IMG/VR virus record: IMGVR_UViG_3300024433_000075
Location: 1 to 20,989 of that record
DNA from: a virus
Reading direction: 5' to 3' (one strand)
Length of the DNA stretch: 20,989 nt
Below the pieces are notes generated by a model. That model worked only from the letters and a program-made list of their open reading frames with translations, had not been told where the DNA came from and searched no databases. Every line of letters begins with the position of its first letter. Within the stretch, counting starts at the first letter, position 1. Shown here piece by piece: positions 5,145 through 20,989 of this stretch. The position numbers and the translations under genes are program-made.

Positions 5145-6479
5145 ATGCCCACCCAACTGATGAAGCTGCAGGATCGGGCCGCGGAGATCGTCCGCACGAT
5201 GCAGGCCCAAAACGATACCCTGGCCGAAGAAGATCGGCTGGAACTGACCGAAGAGGAGCAGGCCCAGTACGACGTCCTGGAGAAGGAGCTGGACCAGGTC
5301 GAGGCCGGCCTGGCCCGGGAACGAAAGCTCCAAGAACGCGAACGCAACCTCACGCCGGTCCGCGAAATCCCCACCGATGGCAGCTCGCAGGCCTCGCAGC
5401 TATTGAGCGGCTCGGCGGCTGAAGGATCGGGCCAGCCGGGTTTCGAGAGTTTTGGCCAGATGCTCCAGGCCGTGGCCCGGGCCGGGATGCAGGACGGCAG
5501 CCTCGATCCGCGGCTGCTGGCACCCCAAGCGGCGACGGGACTTTCCGAGGGCGTTCCCTCGGAGGGCGGCTTTCTGGTGGGCAGCGAAACCACCAACGAG
5601 CTGCTCAAGGCGATCTACGACACGGGCATCCTGGCCTCACGCTGTTCCCGCACCCCGATCGGCGCCGGCAAGAACAGCCTGGAAATCAACGGCATCGACG
5701 AGACCAGCCGCGCCGACGGCTCGCAGTGGGGTGGAGTTGTCGCGTACTGGGAATCGGAAGCAGCGGAGAAGACCGCGAGCAAACCGAAGTTCAGAAGGGT
5801 CAAGCTGAAGCTGCAGAAGCTGATTGGGCTGTGCTACGCCACGGACGAATTGATCGAGGACGCGGTTGCCCTGGAGGCAATCATCCGCGAGGCCTTCCCC
5901 AATGTTTTTGGTTTCAAGATCGACGACGGCATCATCCGCGGAACGGGCGCCGGACAGCTTAAGGGGATTCTGAGCACCGGGCCCAAGGTGCAGGTTTCGA
6001 AGGAAACCGGCCAGGCGGCCAAAACCATCGTGGCCGAGAACGTCGAGAAGATGTATGCGCGGATGTGGGCCAAAGGGATGGCCAACGCCGTGTGGACCAT
6101 CAACCAGGACTGCTGGCCGCAGATCTTTCAGCTCCACCACGTAATCGGCACCGGCGGGGTGCCGATGTTCATTCCCGCCGGCGGTATCAACCAAACTCCC
6201 TTCGGAACCCTGCTGGGCCGGCCGATCCTGCCCATCGAACAGGCCGCCACCCTCGGCACCGAGGGCGATATCATGCTCTGCGACTTCTCGCAGTACAAGC
6301 TGATCGACAAGGGGGGGATCAAATCCGCCGTGAGCATTCACGTTCGTTTCGTTAATGATGAGTCCGTCTACCGCTTCGTGCTACGCGTGGATGGCCAACC
6401 CACCTGGGCCTCGCCGCTCACGCCGGCCCAAGGGACCAACACGGTCTCGCCCTTCGTGACCTTAAAGGTCCGGGCGTAG
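5145..6479 (+). CDS. HK97-family major capsid protein
   Basis: This is the main shell protein of the head. Residues 1-70 form a charged coiled-coil (LAEEDRLELTEEEQAQYDVL then LEKELDQVEAGLARERK), the delta/scaffold arm normally removed by the prohead protease. A Ser/Gly/Gln-rich linker at about 77-130 leads into the HK97 fold, which starts near GGFLVGSETTNELLKAIYDT. Typical elements are FRRVKLKLQKLIGLCYATDE around 216-235 and DDGIIRGTGAGQLKGIL at 260-276. The length of 444 residues is normal for an arm-plus-shell protein. GGAGG at 5131-5135 lies 9 nt before ATG 5145. The stop is followed at once by AAGGAG and a heptamer repeat array. Confidence 0.95.
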   Translation: MPTQLMKLQDRAAEIVRTMQAQNDTLAEEDRLELTEEEQAQYDVLEKELDQVEAGLARERKLQERERNLTPVREIPTDGSSQASQLLSGSAAEGSGQPGFESFGQMLQAVARAGMQDGSLDPRLLAPQAATGLSEGVPSEGGFLVGSETTNELLKAIYDTGILASRCSRTPIGAGKNSLEINGIDETSRADGSQWGGVVAYWESEAAEKTASKPKFRRVKLKLQKLIGLCYATDELIEDAVALEAIIREAFPNVFGFKIDDGIIRGTGAGQLKGILSTGPKVQVSKETGQAAKTIVAENVEKMYARMWAKGMANAVWTINQDCWPQIFQLHHVIGTGGVPMFIPAGGINQTPFGTLLGRPILPIEQAATLGTEGDIMLCDFSQYKLIDKGGIKSAVSIHVRFVNDESVYRFVLRVDGQPTWASPLTPAQGTNTVSPFVTLKVRA

Positions 6480-6485
6480 AAGGAG

Positions 6486-6548
6486 TGCAGAATGCAGAGT
6501 GCAGAAGAGAATGCAGAATGCAGAGTGCAGAATGATGAATTCTGCACT
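6486..6548 (+). repeat. Heptamer repeat array (TGCAGAA type) after the capsid gene
   Basis: About seven imperfect copies of TGCAGAA/TGCAGAG are followed by a single inverted copy, TTCTGCACT. The array begins directly after AAGGAG (6480-6485). Reading from ATG 6492, 6 nt after that AAGGAG, gives a 21-codon open frame. It ends at TAA 6555-6557, which overlaps the ribosome binding site of the next gene. Confidence 0.9.
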
Positions 6549-7061: not shown

Positions 7062-7192
7062 GTGACGGGGTGACAGGGTGACGGGGTGACGGGGTGAAAA
7101 GATGACGATCGCTCACCCCGTCACCCCCTCACCCCGTCACCCTGTCACCCCCTCACCCCGTCACCCCTTCACCCCATCACCCCTTCACCCTT
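7062..7192 (+). repeat. Octamer repeat array, inverted arms (GTGACGGG / TCACCCCN)
   Basis: The left arm (7062-7097) has four to five GTGACGGG-like units. After the short spacer GATGACGATCG come about ten TCACCCCN units (7112-7192), the complement of the left arm. The arms can pair into a long G/C-rich hairpin in RNA or single-stranded DNA. AGGAG at 7051-7055, overlapping the previous stop codon, lies just upstream of the array. Confidence 0.92.
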
Positions 7193-8147: not shown

Positions 8148-8254
8148 GAGGGGGTGACGGATGAATGCAGAATGCAGAATGCAGAATGCAGAATGAAAGA
8201 CTTTTGATTCTGCATTCTGCATTCTGCATTCCTTTCACCCCCTCACCCCCTCAC
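8148..8254 (+). repeat. Nested repeat: heptamer hairpin inside octamer arms
   Basis: The outer left arm GGGGGTGACGG (8149-8160) is complementary to outer right TCACCCCCTCACCCCC units (8235-8254). Inside it are four to five TGCAGAA-type units (from 8163), a loop AAAGACTTTTGA and about three TTCTGCA units (8208-8231). The pairing is nearly perfect. The loop AAAGASTTTTGA recurs in the array at 12691-12770 and, degenerate, at 11604-11721, so these arrays belong to one dispersed family. Confidence 0.92.
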
Positions 8255-8269
8255 TTTTAAGAGGGATCG

Positions 8270-8698
8270 ATGGAAGCCAAGAAGAGCCACGACGCCGCCT
8301 GCCTGTTGGCGTCCGCCGCCAGAACCGCGGCGGGCACGGTCAACGAGGCCGCGATCCGGCTGCCCCGGCCGCTGGCTGCCTTGTGCCTGATCCTGGACGT
8401 TACCGCCGCGGCCACCGACGTCGGCGACACCCTGGACGTGAAGGTCCAGACCAAGCTCGACGGCACCAACTGGCTGGACGTGGCCGCCTTCACCAAGGTG
8501 CTGGGCAACGGCGGGGCCAAGCGGCACGTGGCAAAAATCGCCTGCGGGGCCGCGGAGGCGATGTTCGCCGATACGGTTTTGGCCGCCGGCAGCGTGCGGA
8601 ACCTGCTGGGCGACGAGTGGCGGGTGGTGCACGCCATCGTGGACAGCGGCGACGCCAACCAGTCATTTACCTTCGCAGTCACCGCGATTCCCATGTAG
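8270..8698 (+). CDS. Unknown small phage structural protein
   Basis: I do not recognise this 142-residue protein with certainty. It contains PLAALCLILDVTAAATDVGD then TLDVKVQTKLDGTNWLDV (about 32-71), a pattern of beta strands with D-G-T-N-W turns. I associate this with small beta-sandwich proteins encoded between capsid and neck genes. There is no signal peptide. GAGGG at 8261-8265 lies 4 nt before ATG 8270. A 19-bp gap without repeats separates it from the next gene, so the two are probably co-translated. A minor capsid or decoration role is inference from position only. Confidence 0.78.
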   Translation: MEAKKSHDAACLLASAARTAAGTVNEAAIRLPRPLAALCLILDVTAAATDVGDTLDVKVQTKLDGTNWLDVAAFTKVLGNGGAKRHVAKIACGAAEAMFADTVLAAGSVRNLLGDEWRVVHAIVDSGDANQSFTFAVTAIPM

Positions 8699-8717
8699 AG
8701 AAAAAAGGAAACCAATT

Positions 8718-9515
8718 GTGCACATTGTGATCCAAGAGACCGGCGAGATCGTGGAGGTGCTGCACGCCGAGGGCCGATTGCGGATTGCCGCCGGCGAGGC
8801 CGAGTATATCGGGCCGACTGAGGCCTTCGAGGTGTTGGCCGCCAAATCCGGCAATGGCCAAAGGGCCAAACCCCCGGCTGCCACTGCTCGCCCGGTGGGC
8901 GCCGGGCGCCGCAAACCGTTCCTCCGGGACGTCCCGGATCCCGAGCCGATCGACGCAATGCCGCAGGATCTCAAAGACGAGCTCCAGCGGCAGCCGGCCG
9001 AACAGCCCGAACCCATCGAAGAGCCGGAACCGATCGAAGAACCCGAGGCGATCGAAGAGCCGAAACTGTTCGAAGAGCCGGAGCCGGTGGAAGAGCCCGA
9101 GCCGGACGAAGAGCCCGAGCCGGACGAAGAGCCCGAGCCGGACGAAGAGCCCGAGCCGATCGAAGAGTCGGAACCGGACGAAGAGCCGGAACCGGACGAA
9201 GAGCCGGAGCCGGACGAAGAGCCCGAGCCGGACGAAGAGCCCGAGGCGATCGAAGAGCCCGAGGCGATCGAAGAGTCGGAACCGGATGAAGAGCCCGAGC
9301 CGGACGAACCCGCGGCTGCCGATCACGATCCCACGCTGGAGGAACTGGGCATCACGGGCCACCTGGCCGAGATGCTCGAGGACGAGGACCTGCTGACCTA
9401 CTCGGCACTCCGCGGATTCGGCGATCTGAGATTGATCGACGGGATCGGCGAGGCCTATGAGGCGGAAGTGGAGAACGCACTAAACGCCTGGGACGACCGG
9501 GAAACAACCGAGTAA
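8718..9515 (+). CDS. Acidic hexapeptide-repeat protein with C-terminal helix-hairpin-helix-like domain
   Basis: The 265-residue protein starts at GTG 8718, seven nt after AAAGGAA. Residues 1-45 are a small beta region (MHIVIQETGEIVEVLHAEGR). Residues 50-94 are a basic, disordered linker. Residues 95-196 are exactly 17 hexapeptide units of the type EEPEPD/EEPEPI, a strongly acidic proline-rich rod. Residues 205-258 form a compact helical domain (TLEELGITGHLAEMLEDE, then DLRLIDGIGEAYEAEVENAL) whose LIDGIGEAYEAEV matches a helix-hairpin-helix. The domain as a whole resembles the RNA polymerase alpha C-terminal domain. Such domains often bind DNA. I do not know the family. It could be a head-attached spacer protein, an internal DNA-binding protein or a host-directed factor. 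Confidence 0.82.
   Translation: MHIVIQETGEIVEVLHAEGRLRIAAGEAEYIGPTEAFEVLAAKSGNGQRAKPPAATARPVGAGRRKPFLRDVPDPEPIDAMPQDLKDELQRQPAEQPEPIEEPEPIEEPEAIEEPKLFEEPEPVEEPEPDEEPEPDEEPEPDEEPEPIEESEPDEEPEPDEEPEPDEEPEPDEEPEAIEEPEAIEESEPDEEPEPDEPAAADHDPTLEELGITGHLAEMLEDEDLLTYSALRGFGDLRLIDGIGEAYEAEVENALNAWDDRETTE
9000..9305 (+). repeat. In-frame 18-bp repeats coding EEPEPD/EEPEPI
   Basis: There are 17 tandem 18-bp units, typically GAAGAGCCCGAGCCGGAC, inside the acidic protein gene. The units differ mainly at third codon positions and at the sixth residue (D, I, V or F). This suggests expansion by slippage or unequal recombination followed by selection on the protein. It is distinct from the intergenic heptamers and octamers. 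Confidence 0.93.
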
Positions 9516-9527
9516 CCAAAGAAGGAG

Positions 9528-9599
9528 TGCAGAGTGCAGAATGCAGAATGCAGAATCAAAAGTCTTTTATTCTGCATTCTGCATTCTGCATTCTGCACT
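9528..9599 (+). repeat. Heptamer hairpin array before the connector gene
   Basis: TGCAGAG and TGCAGAA units, a loop ATCAAAAGTCTTTT and four inverted TTCTGCA units form a near-perfect hairpin. The array starts directly after AAGGAG (9522-9527). It ends 9 nt before ATG 9609, leaving no ribosome binding site at the expected place for that ATG. Confidence 0.92.
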
Positions 9600-9608
9600 C
9601 ACCGCCTC

Positions 9609-10184
9609 ATGTCGCTCACCCAAACCGTACCGCCCAGTGGAGAACCGGTCTCGCGGGAAGAGGCCAAAACGGCGCTGCGGGTCGACGGCAGCCACGAGGA
9701 CGCTTACATCGACGCGCTGATTGTCAGCGCCCGTACCTACGCCGAGATCGCCACCGCCCGGCAGTTGATGACGGCCACCTGGCAGTTGAAGCTGGACGCC
9801 TTTCCGGCGGCGGTGATCGAGCTGCCCCGGCCGCCCCTGCAGGCAGTGAATTGGATCAAGTACATCGACGCGGCCGGGGTGGAACAAACGCTCGCCAGCG
9901 GCCGCTACCTGGTAGATACCCACGGCGAGCCGGGCCGGATCACGCCGGCCTACGGCCGGAGCTGGCCGGTTTGCCGGAAGCAGCTCGACGCGGTAGAGAT
10001 CAATTATGTGGCTGGCTACGGCGGCTCCCACCAGGTGCCGCAGACGATCAAGACGGCCATCGAGCAGCTCGCCGGCCACTGGTTCAAGCTGCGGGAGCCG
10101 GTCGTGACCGGCACGACCGCCGCCAAAATCCCGCTGAGTGCCGAATCGCTGCTGCTGGCCGAGGGTTGGGGCGGCTACAGTTGA
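9609..10184 (+). CDS. Head-tail connector protein (phiE125 gp8 / gp6-like)
   Basis: This adaptor sits under the portal ring and connects head to tail. The 191-residue form carries PVSREEAKTALRVDGSHEDA (13-32), LIVSARTYAEIATARQLMTA (37-56), a beta region VIELPRPPLQAVNWIKYIDA near 69-88, and INYVAGYG (131-138) followed by VPQTIKTAIEQLAGHW (143-158). This order is typical of the phiE125 gp8 family. The start is ambiguous. ATG 9609 gives the family-like N-terminus but has no ribosome binding site, because the repeat array ends just before it. GTG 9534, in frame, lies 6 nt after AAGGAG and would add 25 residues coded by the repeat (VQNAECRIKS and onward). Gene identity is firm, the start is not. 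Confidence 0.88.
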   Translation: MSLTQTVPPSGEPVSREEAKTALRVDGSHEDAYIDALIVSARTYAEIATARQLMTATWQLKLDAFPAAVIELPRPPLQAVNWIKYIDAAGVEQTLASGRYLVDTHGEPGRITPAYGRSWPVCRKQLDAVEINYVAGYGGSHQVPQTIKTAIEQLAGHWFKLREPVVTGTTAAKIPLSAESLLLAEGWGGYS

Positions 10185-10192
10185 AGGAAGAC

Positions 10193-10254
10193 AGAATGCA
10201 GAATGCAGAATGCAGAATGAGGATTCAGCCTTCTGCATTCTGCATTCTGCATTC
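10193..10254 (+). repeat. Heptamer hairpin array before the head-closure gene
   Basis: About three to four GCAGAAT units, a loop around GAGGATTCAGCC, and about three inverted TTCTGCA units are present. AGGAAG (10185-10190), directly after the connector stop, precedes the array. The following ATG 10263 has only a weak GAAAG upstream. Confidence 0.92.
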
Positions 10255-10262
10255 CTGAAAGC

Positions 10263-10591: not shown

Positions 10592-11092
10592 ATGGCAAAC
10601 ACGGGCATCATCACCGCGGGTTTTAAGGAGCTCGAGCGGGCCTTGAAGCTGCTTCCCGATCGGATCCAGCGGCGGGTGATGCGGACTGCGTCCACGAAGG
10701 CGGCCCGGCCGATCGTCAAGGCGGCCAAGGCCAACGCCCGGCGGACCAAGACGGGCCGGAAGCTGCTGGCCAAGAGTATCGGCCAGAGGAGCAAGAGCTA
10801 TACGGCGACGCAGACGATTGTCACCGTGATCGGCCCGCGCTGGGGTTTTAAGCAGGAGGTGGGCAGGACCGGCGCTGGCAAGGCGATTTACGAGGACCCG
10901 GCCAAGATCGCCCACCTGGTTGAGCACGGCCACGTGCTGGCGATCGGCGGCAATGTAGTCGGGCACGTGCCGGCGCACCCGTTTCTGCGGCCGGCATTCG
11001 AGTCGCAGAAGGGCCCCGCCCTGGCGATCTACAAACGGGAGTTGGCCGCGGGAATCGAACGCGAGGCCCGCAAACTGGCCGGGAAAAGGTGA
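10592..11092 (+). CDS. HK97 gp10-like neck/tail completion protein
   Basis: The 166-residue protein begins GIITAGFKELERALKLLPDR, followed by a basic helical part (AARPIVKAAKANARRTKTGR). It ends in the family-typical HLVEHGHV and VPAHPFLRPAFES. This matches the HK97 gp10 family, which acts at the neck or tail end during completion. ATG 10592 lies 2 nt after the stop of the closure gene (GTG 10589 is the only alternative nearby). The TGA stop lies inside the first unit of the following octamer array. The gene appears intact and of normal length. Confidence 0.9.
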   Translation: MANTGIITAGFKELERALKLLPDRIQRRVMRTASTKAARPIVKAAKANARRTKTGRKLLAKSIGQRSKSYTATQTIVTVIGPRWGFKQEVGRTGAGKAIYEDPAKIAHLVEHGHVLAIGGNVVGHVPAHPFLRPAFESQKGPALAIYKRELAAGIEREARKLAGKR

Positions 11093-11165
11093 CGGGGTGA
11101 TCGGGTGACGGGGTGATCGGGTGACGGGGTGATCGGGTGACGGGGTGATCGGGTGACGGGGTGAC
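11089..11165 (+). repeat. Octamer array in 16-bp higher-order units
   Basis: Four perfect copies of GTGACGGGGTGATCGG (11089-11152) are followed by GTGACGGGGTGAC. It is unlike the other arrays in two ways: it has no inverted arm, and its copies are identical, which suggests recent tandem amplification. It contains the stop codon of the upstream gene and ends 6 nt before the next ATG. Confidence 0.95.
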
Positions 11166-11171
11166 AATATT

Positions 11172-11603
11172 ATGAGCATCAAAATCGCGCTGGTGCACTA
11201 CCTGCTCAGCCAAGCCGCCGTCAAGCGTCACGTGGGCACGCGGATCTTTTGGGGGCAGCTGCCGCAGGGGCAGGCCTCGCCGGCGATCACCTGCGAGAAG
11301 GTGGGCGGGACGCCCACCGCGCACCAGGGTGGGGCGGCCAGCGCGGCCTCGAGCCGGATACAGGTCTCCTGCTGGTCCAAAAGCCCCAAGGAGGCAGAGG
11401 CCGTCAAGGAGGCGGTGCGGCTCTCGCTGGTCGGCTTCCAGGGAAATCTCGGGCCGCCGGGCGGCCAGGTGGCCGTGCTGATGATCGAACACGCCGGCGA
11501 CTACGACGGTTTCGAGGCCGACCGCAGCGGCGGACCGGGAGGGATCAACGAGGTGGCCATCGATCTGAATATCTGGCACCGCCAGCCGGTGCCCAGTTTT
11601 TGA
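11172..11603 (+). CDS. Tail completion/terminator protein (DUF3168-like)
   Basis: This 143-residue protein fits the DUF3168 family of siphophage tail completion proteins, which cap the tail tube at the head-proximal end. Recognisable parts are the N-terminal helix IALVHYLLSQAAVKRHVGTR, a strand PAITCEKVGG, SSRIQVSCWSKSPKEAEAVK, a helix and the C-terminal strand EVAIDLNIWHRQP. Length and place, after gp10 and before the tail tube, are both as expected. An octamer array ends 6 nt before ATG 11172, so a conventional ribosome binding site is missing. The GGGGTGA of the array is the only G-rich stretch that could serve. Confidence 0.87.
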   Translation: MSIKIALVHYLLSQAAVKRHVGTRIFWGQLPQGQASPAITCEKVGGTPTAHQGGAASAASSRIQVSCWSKSPKEAEAVKEAVRLSLVGFQGNLGPPGGQVAVLMIEHAGDYDGFEADRSGGPGGINEVAIDLNIWHRQPVPSF

Positions 11604-11721
11604 AAGAAATGCAGAATGCAGAATGAAGAATGTAGAATGAAGAATGCAGAATGAAGAATGCAGACTTAAGAGTTTTTGATTCTGCATTCTGCACTCTGCA
11701 TTCTGCATTCCTTTCACCCCC
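11604..11721 (+). repeat. Degenerate heptamer hairpin array
   Basis: The left arm has about nine units, several changed (GAAGAAT, GTAGAAT). Then come the loop CTTAAGAGTTTTTGA, an inverted right arm of about five TTCTGCA/CTCTGCA units, and CCTTTCACCCCC. The left arm has drifted more than the right. The next gene has its own ribosome binding site (GAGGAG at 11729-11734). Confidence 0.9.
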
Positions 11722-12674: not shown

Positions 12675-12690
12675 TGAAAGCAGAAGAAAA

Positions 12691-12770
12691 TGCAGAATGC
12701 AGAATGCAGAATGCAGAATGAAAGAGTTTTGATTCTGCATTCTGCATTCTGCATTCTGCATTCCTTTCAC
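12691..12770 (+). repeat. Heptamer hairpin array before the tail chaperone
   Basis: Four TGCAGAA units, the loop AAAGAGTTTTGA and four inverted TTCTGCA units form a near-perfect hairpin, followed by CCTTTCACCCC. It is almost identical to the inner part of the array at 8148-8254. The next gene has its own GGGAGG ribosome binding site downstream of the array. Confidence 0.93.
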
Positions 12771-17924: not shown

Positions 17925-17926
17925 GC

Positions 17927-18034
17927 AGAGTGCAGAAGAAAGTGCAGAGTGCAGAGTGCAGAATGGAGAGTGCAGAATGGAGAGTGCAGAAACTCAGCCC
18001 GTCACCCCGTCACCCCTTCACCCGCTCACCCCAT
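17927..18034 (+). repeat. Mixed heptamer and octamer array after the tail genes
   Basis: About nine GCAGAGT/GCAGAAT/GGAGAGT heptamers (17927-17990) are followed by four to five TCACCCCN octamers (18000-18034). Neither has an inverted partner. The frame of the following thermonuclease-like gene is open through the array back to ATG 17956. Confidence 0.9.
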
Positions 18035-18036
18035 CA

Positions 18037-18438: not shown

Positions 18439-19416
18439 CTACTGGCCGTGCTTGAGTGAAAACTGGGTTTGCCACTCTCGGAAGGCTCCTTGGACGATCT
18501 GTTTGGGGTCGGCGTCAGGGAGTGAAAGCACATACCGCCGAGCAATGTGGGCTATGAAATCCTCCAGCTCTGAGTAGCTAAGGCCTGCCAACTTGGCTGC
18601 AAGCGTTTGGGGCTTGAGGCTCAGCGAGACATCAAGTGTTTTCGCCGCGCTTTCGAAGAATTGCTGGGCTTGTGACGGCGTAGGTGGCGGCAGTTCAAGT
18701 CGAAGTTGAAACCGTCGCCACACTGCCCGATCCAGCAACTCGGGGTGGTTGGTGGCCGTGACGACAACCACGTACGGCGGAAGATCATCGACCTGGAGCA
18801 ACAGAGAACTGACCACGCGCTTGATTTCGCCGGTTTCGTGAATGTCGCCGCGTTCCTTCCCGATCGTGTCGAATTCGTCAAAGAATAGCACGCACTGTCG
18901 AGTATGGACATAGTCGAAGAGTTTTCGCAGGCGTGATGCAGTCTCTCCGAGGTAGCTTGCGATCAGGCCGTCATAGCGGACCACGATGAAAGGAACCATC
19001 AGGGCGTTGGCCAAAGCCTCGGCGAGGGACGTTTTTCCGTTGCCGGGAGCCCCTGCAAGGAGCACACGATTGCGCGGCACAAGGTTGTGGGACCGCAGGA
19101 GGTCCGCGCGGCTGTGCTCCTCGACAAGATCGTGGCACGCGTCACGAACGTTCTTAGGCAATATCAAGTCGTCAAAGCTACGCTTAGGCACGAGTTCGTA
19201 AACGAGGTCGTCAACCGAGGCGTCCGTCGTCACCTTAGGCTCAGAGAGGCGTGGGGAGCCGTCCCGATCCAGTTGGTCAGCCAGACGGTTGGCCAAGATT
19301 TCGTGCCGTTTGGCTCGCTTCTCTGCAATCAATGACTCCACCGTCTTGCGGAACGCCGTTTGATCGCCGGATACACCGGCCTTCACCAGGGATATGAGCA
19401 AGTCAGAGCGAGCCAT
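18439..19416 (-). CDS. ietA: AAA+ ATPase, partner of S8 peptidase (ietA-like)
   Basis: The 325-residue protein has a helical N-terminal part (MARSDLLISLVKAGVSGDQT to about 55) and a classical AAA+ core. Walker A is GAPGNGKTS at 122-130, Walker B is CVLFFDEFD at 175-183 with D180 and E181, sensor 1 is N223 in TATNHPELLD, and the Arg-finger region DRAVWRRF is at 229-236. The motor is intact. With the adjacent peptidase fragment it matches the ATPase-subtilase pair known as ietAS, reported as a plasmid-stabilising toxin-antitoxin system in which the ATPase is the antitoxin; similar pairs are listed among candidate defence systems. It is convergent to the phage operon. TAGAAT 36-41 nt upstream of the ORF could be a -10 box, without a good -35. 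No Shine-Dalgarno sequence is evident. Confidence 0.85.
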   Translation of the reverse strand: MARSDLLISLVKAGVSGDQTAFRKTVESLIAEKRAKRHEILANRLADQLDRDGSPRLSEPKVTTDASVDDLVYELVPKRSFDDLILPKNVRDACHDLVEEHSRADLLRSHNLVPRNRVLLAGAPGNGKTSLAEALANALMVPFIVVRYDGLIASYLGETASRLRKLFDYVHTRQCVLFFDEFDTIGKERGDIHETGEIKRVVSSLLLQVDDLPPYVVVVTATNHPELLDRAVWRRFQLRLELPPPTPSQAQQFFESAAKTLDVSLSLKPQTLAAKLAGLSYSELEDFIAHIARRYVLSLPDADPKQIVQGAFREWQTQFSLKHGQ

Positions 19417-20824: not shown

Positions 20825-20989
20825 ATGCACTCTCCAGTCTCCACTCTCCATTCTCCACTCAGACTGCGGTTGTTCCGTCCCGAAGAAGCCTCACCCCCTC
20901 ACCCCCTCACCCCCTCACCCCCTCATCTCTCCCCGGAGATGACGCTTTGCGATCTCTTCCGGCAATACTTCCTCCCCGTGCGATTGCTG
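20825..20989 (+). CDS. N-terminus of a probable tyrosine recombinase (cut by window end)
   Basis: A frame opens at ATG 20825, about 9 nt after GAGGAG, and runs off the window after 55 codons. The first part is coded by short repeats: HSPVSTLHSPL comes from a 7-bp repeat, and SPPHPLTPSPPH comes from an 8-bp repeat. The sequence MTLCDLFRQYFLPVRLL follows. It resembles the start of the core-binding domain of phage integrases ('MTLxxFhxxYFxPxRL'), which I remember from planctomycete recombinases. The inner ATG 20939 would give the family-like N-terminus, but GGAG there directly touches the ATG, too close to act as a ribosome binding site. So either the repeat-coded leader is translated or initiation is atypical. 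The catalytic domain is outside the window. Confidence 0.5.
   Translation, partial: MHSPVSTLHSPLRLRLFRPEEASPPHPLTPSPPHLSPEMTLCDLFRQYFLPVRLL
20831..20860 (+). repeat. TCTCCAC-type heptamer repeat inside a coding frame
   Basis: Four TCTCCAN units lie in frame just after ATG 20825. The complementary GGAGAGT units occur in the array at 17927-17990, so this belongs to the same heptamer family. Confidence 0.85.
20891..20925 (+). repeat. TCACCCCC octamer array inside a coding frame
   Basis: Four perfect TCACCCCC units are followed by TCAT. They are read in frame between ATG 20825 and ATG 20939. Confidence 0.92.

What the first reader, a model, noticed from the sequence alone, without database searches (positions are those of the whole stretch)
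8718..9515. Acidic 17 x 6-residue rod tipped by an alpha-CTD/helix-hairpin-helix-like domain
A disordered basic linker, exactly 17 EEPEPD-type units and a compact domain ending in LIDGIGEAYEAEV are an odd combination for a head gene. The terminal domain resembles the C-terminal domain of RNA polymerase alpha, which binds DNA and regulators. Possible roles are an internal head protein that organises DNA, a host-transcription factor delivered with DNA, or an anti-restriction DNA-mimic rod. None can be chosen from the sequence.
Basis: partly seen in the sequence, partly recalled or inferred. Interest (0 to 1): 0.65.

Follow-up and report, generated by a model that had tools for sequence, protein, structure and literature searches.

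The report
Acidic-stalk protein in phage head operon
A metagenomic phage carries, between its capsid and neck genes, a one-off gene for a protein with a long Glu/Pro stalk and a small, strongly acidic helix-hairpin-helix-like tip; it looks like an unusual version of a common accessory head gene, more likely a tethered protein-binding tip than a DNA binder.

Summary
In detail: one GTG-started ORF (8718-9515, 265 aa) lies in a siphophage head operon, with exactly 17 hexads (PEPxEE; residues 97-198) and a 67-aa C-terminal domain. That domain weakly but consistently resembles (HhH)2 domains: its only PDB sequence hits are RNAP alpha subunits (best E 0.017), and its score against HhH and alpha-CTD profiles is reached by 1/3000 and 13/3000 shuffles. 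No family model matches, and no homologue was found. The DNA-binding reading is disfavoured: the tip has no lysine and net charge -16, in the range of the acidic NusA C-terminal repeats and outside sampled alpha-CTD/HhH domains; alpha-CTD's conserved R, N, K and S positions are not kept. The gene occupies a variable slot between capsid genes and head-tail connector. The closest phages have nothing there; others carry small proteins with a FluMu_N/DUF7302-like domain, a charged linker and sometimes a SAP/HeH or HhH tip, including one acidic-linker + HhH protein (L020). JBD30 gp39, from the same interval, is a capsid decoration protein and matches FluMu_N, but the target's N-domain does not match that family. 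Best reading: a dispensable head-associated protein holding an acidic protein-binding tip on a ~30 nm stalk. Function is inferred.

The parts
8705..8709 (+). Shine-Dalgarno-like AAGGA, 8 nt before the GTG start
   Evidence: read directly from sequence
8718..9515 (+). the gene: 265-aa acidic-stalk protein (pI 4.05, net charge -77)
8718..8846 (+). N-terminal domain, residues 1-43: hydropathy of a folded segment; three strands in a low-confidence model; no family assigned
8847..9005 (+). linker: residues 44-69 basic (net +6), 70-96 acidic (net -5)
9006..9311 (+). stalk: exactly 17 hexads (PEPxEE type), residues 97-198, net -57, predicted disordered or extended
9312..9512 (+). C-terminal tip, residues 199-265: acidic (HhH)2-like helical domain, net -16, 0 Lys
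8270..8698 (+). upstream neighbour: 142-aa conserved head-region protein; in close relatives followed directly by the connector gene
9609..10184 (+). downstream neighbour: gp6-like head-tail connector (Ad1)
   Evidence: PF05135 E 1.8e-8, phrog_442 E 4e-22
5145..6479 (+). major capsid protein (HK97 fold family), used to find related phages
   Evidence: PF05065 E 4.5e-42

Best explanation
The gene encodes a dispensable accessory protein of the phage head, in a variable slot between the capsid genes and the head-tail connector. A small N-terminal domain, perhaps with the basic patch after it, would dock the protein on the capsid or neck. The 17-hexad Glu/Pro stalk (102 residues, up to about 32 nm if a fully extended polyproline-II chain) holds an acidic (HhH)2-like tip away from the particle, where it contacts a protein partner rather than DNA. 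Shown: gene, position, repeat, charge, absence from the closest relatives, similar N-domain + charged-linker + mini-domain proteins in the same slot elsewhere. Inferred: virion association, N-terminal docking, extended stalk, protein-binding tip.
For: Position: between the 142-aa gene and the connector. Dispensability: in nearest relatives (MCP 59-66% identical, L002-L005; also L096, L097, L104, L105, L112) the 142-aa gene runs straight into the connector with at most about 14 bp between. Slot class: same interval in other phages holds N-domain + charged linker +/- mini-domain proteins (L093 SAP-like, L076 acidic repeats, L020 acidic/Pro linker + HHH_5 E 0.0093, L190, L051, L125; NIIg3.2 gp07 with acidic linker; 80alpha gp48), and most of the N-domains tested form a real family (11 of 13 leave-one-out tests reached by at most 8 of 2000 shuffles). 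Decoration precedent: JBD30 gp39, between MCP and adaptor, sits as trimers on the capsid with an unresolved N-terminus (PMC11445458) and matches FluMu_N, E 9e-5. Tip: (HhH)2-like; charge matches NusA acidic repeats, not alpha-CTD/HHH_5. Stalk: predicted disordered; Glu/Pro repeats forming an extended spacer is the known role in TonB (own knowledge).
Against: The target's own N-domain does not match the slot N-domain family (2242/5000 shuffles score as well) or the GGGWYE mini-domain, so homology to JBD30 gp39-type decoration proteins is not shown and the link is positional only. No virion proteomics was found for this phage. The slot protein of NIIg3.2 was not detected in virions, but portal and connector were not detected either (PMC10530707). 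PHROGs labels some slot proteins 'Arc-like repressor', i.e. possibly regulatory.
Confidence: 0.4

Rival explanations
1. Non-structural assembly factor or chaperone: a soluble acidic protein made with head proteins that shields basic surfaces of capsid, portal or connector before DNA packaging and is absent from mature particles.
For: Extreme acidity (net -77); position next to connector; several slot proteins have opposite-charge basic tails, so electrostatic partners are plausible.
Against: Closest relatives with 59-66% identical MCPs lack it at this place; the (HhH)2-like tip is unexplained.
Confidence: 0.17
2. Host-takeover factor: the tip is an acidic (HhH)2 mimic of NusA's acidic repeat or of alpha-CTD that binds host RNA polymerase or NusA, made late or delivered with the genome.
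For: Sequence hits to RNAP alpha subunits only; only VIA rows are NusA acidic-repeat domains, one in complex with lambda N (Z 4.0, 3.5); charge within the NusA acidic-repeat range; slot relatives labelled transcription regulation in PHROGs.
Against: The NusA-repeat profile is not significant (72/3000 shuffles) and the Z scores are weak; placement in the head operon is late and structural; no homologue.
Confidence: 0.12
3. One reading: internal head protein that binds and organises packaged DNA through an alpha-CTD/HhH domain.
For: HhH-like tip; SAP/HeH domains, often DNA-binding, occur in the same slot elsewhere.
Against: Tip net -16 with no Lys, stalk net -57; alpha-CTD DNA-contact-type residues missing; such a protein should be repelled by packaged DNA.
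Confidence: 0.08
4. Anti-restriction / anti-defence DNA mimic: the acidic rod and tip imitate DNA phosphates.
For: Charge density: net about -57 over 102 residues.
Against: Known DNA mimics (Ocr, ArdA, Gam; own knowledge) are compact folded proteins, mostly made early; a Pro-rich disordered array in a late head operon is unlike them. Negative charge alone is no evidence of mimicry.
Confidence: 0.08
5. Passenger gene: a recently acquired or drifting ORF with a slippage-expanded repeat and no important role.
For: No homologue in IMG/VR, INPHARED or about 400 genomes of a class rich in related prophages; absent from nearest relatives; the 17 units (12 distinct in DNA) show repeated duplication.
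Against: Open frame, good ribosome-binding site, GC3 like neighbours (0.78-0.90), hexad Glu positions kept through synonymous change (14 synonymous among 33 neighbour codon differences; GAA invariant at position 5).
Confidence: 0.15

Closest known systems
Small slot proteins between MCP and gp6/gp15-type connector (phage 80alpha gp48, Parageobacillus phage NIIg3.2 gp07, S. agalactiae phage vB_Sags-UPM1 gene 12 'HeH/LEM domain', FluMu_N/DUF7302-like proteins)
   Same: Gene position; three-part plan of N-terminal domain, charged linker and optional C-terminal mini-domain; acidic linker in NIIg3.2 gp07, L076 and L020; HHH_5-like tip in L020
   Different: Target N-domain not detectably homologous; linker is a 17-copy hexad array; tip is (HhH)2-like and very acidic instead of SAP/HeH or basic tail
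JBD30 gp39 minor capsid (decoration) protein (PMC11445458)
   Same: Encoded between MCP and adaptor; has a folded beta domain plus a long unresolved tail rich in Asp/Glu/Pro/Thr
   Different: Order reversed (tail N-terminal); FluMu_N match not shared by the target
RNA polymerase alpha-CTD (1doq etc.)
   Same: Sequence similarity over most of the tip, including the GIGE hairpin (E 0.017)
   Different: Strongly acidic; conserved DNA-contact residues absent; not part of a polymerase subunit
NusA C-terminal acidic repeats (1u9l, 6gov)
   Same: Helical (HhH)2-type fold by VIA-align (weak); same range of net charge
   Different: Profile match not significant (72/3000 shuffles); no S1/KH domains
TonB Glu-Pro/Lys-Pro spacer
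   Same: Pro/Glu repeat acting as extended spacer (works like; own knowledge)
   Different: No homology shown; no membrane anchor, no TonB domain

Membership tests
RNA polymerase alpha-CTD (PF03118) | match to the family model above cut-off | tested here: not met
   No PF03118 hit with whole protein, domain, or in the window's own six frames at E<=10; phmmer to PDB alpha-CTD E 0.017 and locally built profile 13/3000 shuffles
RNA polymerase alpha-CTD (PF03118) | conserved DNA/UP-element contact residues (VRxxNCL Arg and Asn; G-K-K-S) | tested here: not met
   Target reads GITGHLAEML and GIGEAYEAEV at these places (alignment read by eye; functional role of residues from own knowledge)
(HhH)2 / HHH_5 fold (PF14520) | sequence or fold match | tested here: inconclusive
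   No Pfam hit; local HHH_5 profile 1/3000 shuffles; AF2 pLDDT 75.6 helical domain; Foldseek PDB no match E<=10; VIA Z 4.0 to NusA acidic repeat
NusA C-terminal acidic repeat (TIGR01954) | match to the model | tested here: not met
   No hit in the window at E<=10; local profile 72/3000 shuffles
NusA C-terminal acidic repeat (TIGR01954) | strongly acidic (HhH)2 domain | tested here: inconclusive
   Charge range met (-14 vs -16.6 to -9.7 per 60 aa); fold only weakly supported
MCP-connector slot proteins (FluMu_N/DUF7302-like) | gene position between MCP genes and head-tail connector | tested here: met
MCP-connector slot proteins (FluMu_N/DUF7302-like) | N-terminal FluMu_N/DUF7302-like domain | tested here: not met
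   2242/5000 shuffles score as well as the target, while 11 of 13 members pass leave-one-out; no Pfam hit
MCP-connector slot proteins (FluMu_N/DUF7302-like) | presence in the virion / capsid decoration | not testable with these tools
   needs virion proteomics or cryo-EM; found here only for JBD30 gp39 (PMC11445458)
DNA-mimic anti-restriction proteins | compact fold whose carboxylates are spaced like DNA phosphates, and inhibition of DNA-binding enzymes | not testable with these tools
   only overall negative charge seen

The most novel reading that the evidence does not exclude
A capsid-borne or co-delivered acidic (HhH)2 module on a Glu/Pro stalk that imitates NusA's acidic repeat or alpha-CTD and captures host RNA polymerase at the start of infection.
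Probability: 0.05. Interest if true: 0.8.

Novelty: new variant of a known kind. Interest (0 to 1): 0.36.

Why it matters
Tailed phages often carry a small, poorly understood gene between capsid and connector. This window and its relatives show that the slot is modular, with charged linkers and interchangeable SAP/HeH/HhH/basic tips. One protein of the interval (JBD30 gp39) is a known decoration protein. If others are too, many unassigned or 'Arc-like repressor' proteins would be candidates for head decoration, and the acidic-stalk version would be an extreme, testable case of a domain displayed on the capsid.

Tried and rejected
Homologue searches with tip, N-domain or whole protein: none in IMG/VR, INPHARED, about 390 genomes of the L020-host phylum or about 400 of its class; the weak hits (best E 0.0016 and 0.0019) gave no convincing homologue (tip hits inspected; N-domain hits not inspected one by one). 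N-domain as FluMu_N/DUF7302-like: looked plausible by eye but rejected by shuffles. N-domain as GGGWYE mini-domain: rejected. Full-length AF2 model: pLDDT 55.6, Foldseek hits meaningless. Foldseek of the tip model: no PDB match at E<=10, only poor viral matches. The connector as bait (its identity to close relatives is only 33-36%, so a co-transferred module was suspected): two loci, each with a small FluMu-like gene upstream but no target homologue. Literature on the 80alpha slot protein gp48: no mention in the 80alpha papers searched.

Full report
Observation. The window is an IMG/VR virus record of 20,989 bases holding a siphophage packaging/head/tail module: TerS, TerL, portal, S49 protease, HK97-type MCP, connector, head closure, tail genes and tape measure. 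The reported gene is real: 8718-9515, 265 aa, GTG start with AAGGA 8 nt upstream, on the same strand and with similar third-position GC to its neighbours. Tandem Repeats Finder scores the 18-bp array at 347. In protein register there are exactly 17 hexads, residues 97-198, net charge -57; 12 of the 17 DNA units are distinct, with GAA invariant at the fifth codon and 14 synonymous against 19 non-synonymous neighbour differences. The linker is basic only at residues 44-69. The C-terminal domain is residues 199-265, net -16 with no lysine.

What the tip is. With the domain alone, phmmer against all PDB chains returns seven sequences, all RNA polymerase alpha subunits, best E 0.017. Profiles built here from alpha-CTDs, HHH_5 domains and NusA acidic repeats of bacterial genomes reached through L020 and related loci give the target scores reached by 13, 1 and 72 of 3000 shuffles respectively. 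No Pfam or PHROGs model, and neither NCBIfam's NusA-repeat model, matches the target. AF2 on the domain alone gives helices at 7-10, 15-23, 28-41 and 45-64 of the fragment with pLDDT 75.6. Foldseek finds nothing at E<=10 in the PDB, and the VIA second look lists only NusA acidic-repeat structures at Z 4.0 and 3.5, which is weak. I take the tip to be an (HhH)2-like domain with moderate confidence and do not call it a member of alpha-CTD or NusA-AR.

Does it bind DNA? Net charge per 60 residues is -1 (median; range -3 to +2.9) for alpha-CTDs, +2.9 (-1 to +5.5) for HHH_5 domains, -12.9 (-16.6 to -9.7) for NusA acidic repeats and -14.1 for the target. The conserved alpha-CTD motifs LSVRxxNCL and NxGKKS read GITGHLAEML and GIGEAYEA in the target. 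With a -57 stalk attached, DNA binding is unlikely. The domain looks more like a protein-interaction module.

Context. I used the MCP and the 142-aa neighbour to collect related loci. In the closest phages the 142-aa gene is followed directly by the connector (gaps of at most about 14 bp), so the target gene is an accessory insertion. In more distant phages the slot just upstream of, or close to, the connector holds small genes: N-domain + basic tail (L081, L116, L118, L095, L125), N-domain + SAP-like tip (L093; SAP E 0.0018), N-domain + acidic repeats (L076), N-domain + acidic/Pro linker + basic tail (L190, L051), and in L020 a 225-aa protein with an acidic/Pro linker and an HHH_5-like tip (E 0.0093; 0/3000 shuffles). 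Isolated phages show the same: NIIg3.2 gp07, 80alpha gp48, and a HeH/LEM protein in vB_Sags-UPM1 (PMC10221047). Most of these N-domains are mutually related. The target's N-domain is not detectably related to them (2242/5000 shuffles), an important negative.

A structural precedent. JBD30 gp39 lies between MCP and adaptor, is seen by cryo-EM as trimers on the capsid with residues 1-52 unresolved (PMC11445458), and matches FluMu_N (E 9e-5, just under the curated cut-off). This suggests that FluMu_N-like slot proteins can be decoration proteins. For the target the link is positional only. NIIg3.2 gp07 was not seen in virion proteomics, but neither were portal and connector (PMC10530707), so that is uninformative.

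Mechanism. The best-supported reading is a dispensable head-associated protein in which a small N-terminal domain docks on the capsid or neck, a Glu/Pro stalk of up to about 32 nm (102 residues at 3.1 A) keeps the tip away from the particle, and the acidic tip binds a protein. Docking, stalk extension and partner are inferred.

Novelty. No homologue was found in the collections searched, so the protein is an orphan as far as tested; but its position and plan follow a widespread, little-described class, hence 'new variant of a known kind'.

Noticed in passing
window 6478-6534, 7062-7190, 8163-8231, 9525-9600, 10185-10256, 11088-11165, 11601-11716, 12675-12769, 17925-18036, 20828-20925: Tandem 7-8 bp repeats (GAATGCA, GTGACGGG), in the head region mostly as inverted pairs able to form long hairpins, sit between many structural genes of the phage, one right after the target gene; they look like host-type intergenic elements that have spread into a provirus.
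   Followed up: partly
L268:1591-1932 (JBD30 gp39): The cryo-EM-defined capsid decoration protein of JBD30 matches Pfam FluMu_N (PF17891), which suggests a role for this family and perhaps for DUF7302-like slot proteins.
   Followed up: partly
L128:1642-1929 and L127:3372-3680: PHROGs labels the MCP-connector slot proteins of 80alpha (gp48) and NIIg3.2 (gp07) 'Arc-like repressor', a label that fits poorly with their place in the head operon.
   Followed up: no
L020:4279-4956: 225-aa protein directly upstream of the putative connector gene in a bacterial MAG contig, with an acidic/Pro-rich linker and an HHH_5-like C-terminal domain: an independent case of the target's plan.
   Followed up: yes
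genome G001 (host of L020), contigs C330, C556, C676: Several alpha-CTD-like domains outside the best-scoring (rpoA-like) open frame, two of them in one 452-aa frame.
   Followed up: no
window 18439-19416 (-): AAA+ ATPase gene on the opposite strand downstream of the tail module; its role was not followed.
   Followed up: no
window 9609-10184: The connector is only 33-36% identical to those of the close relatives although MCP is 59-68% and the 142-aa protein 56-58% identical, suggesting a recombination breakpoint near the target gene.
   Followed up: partly
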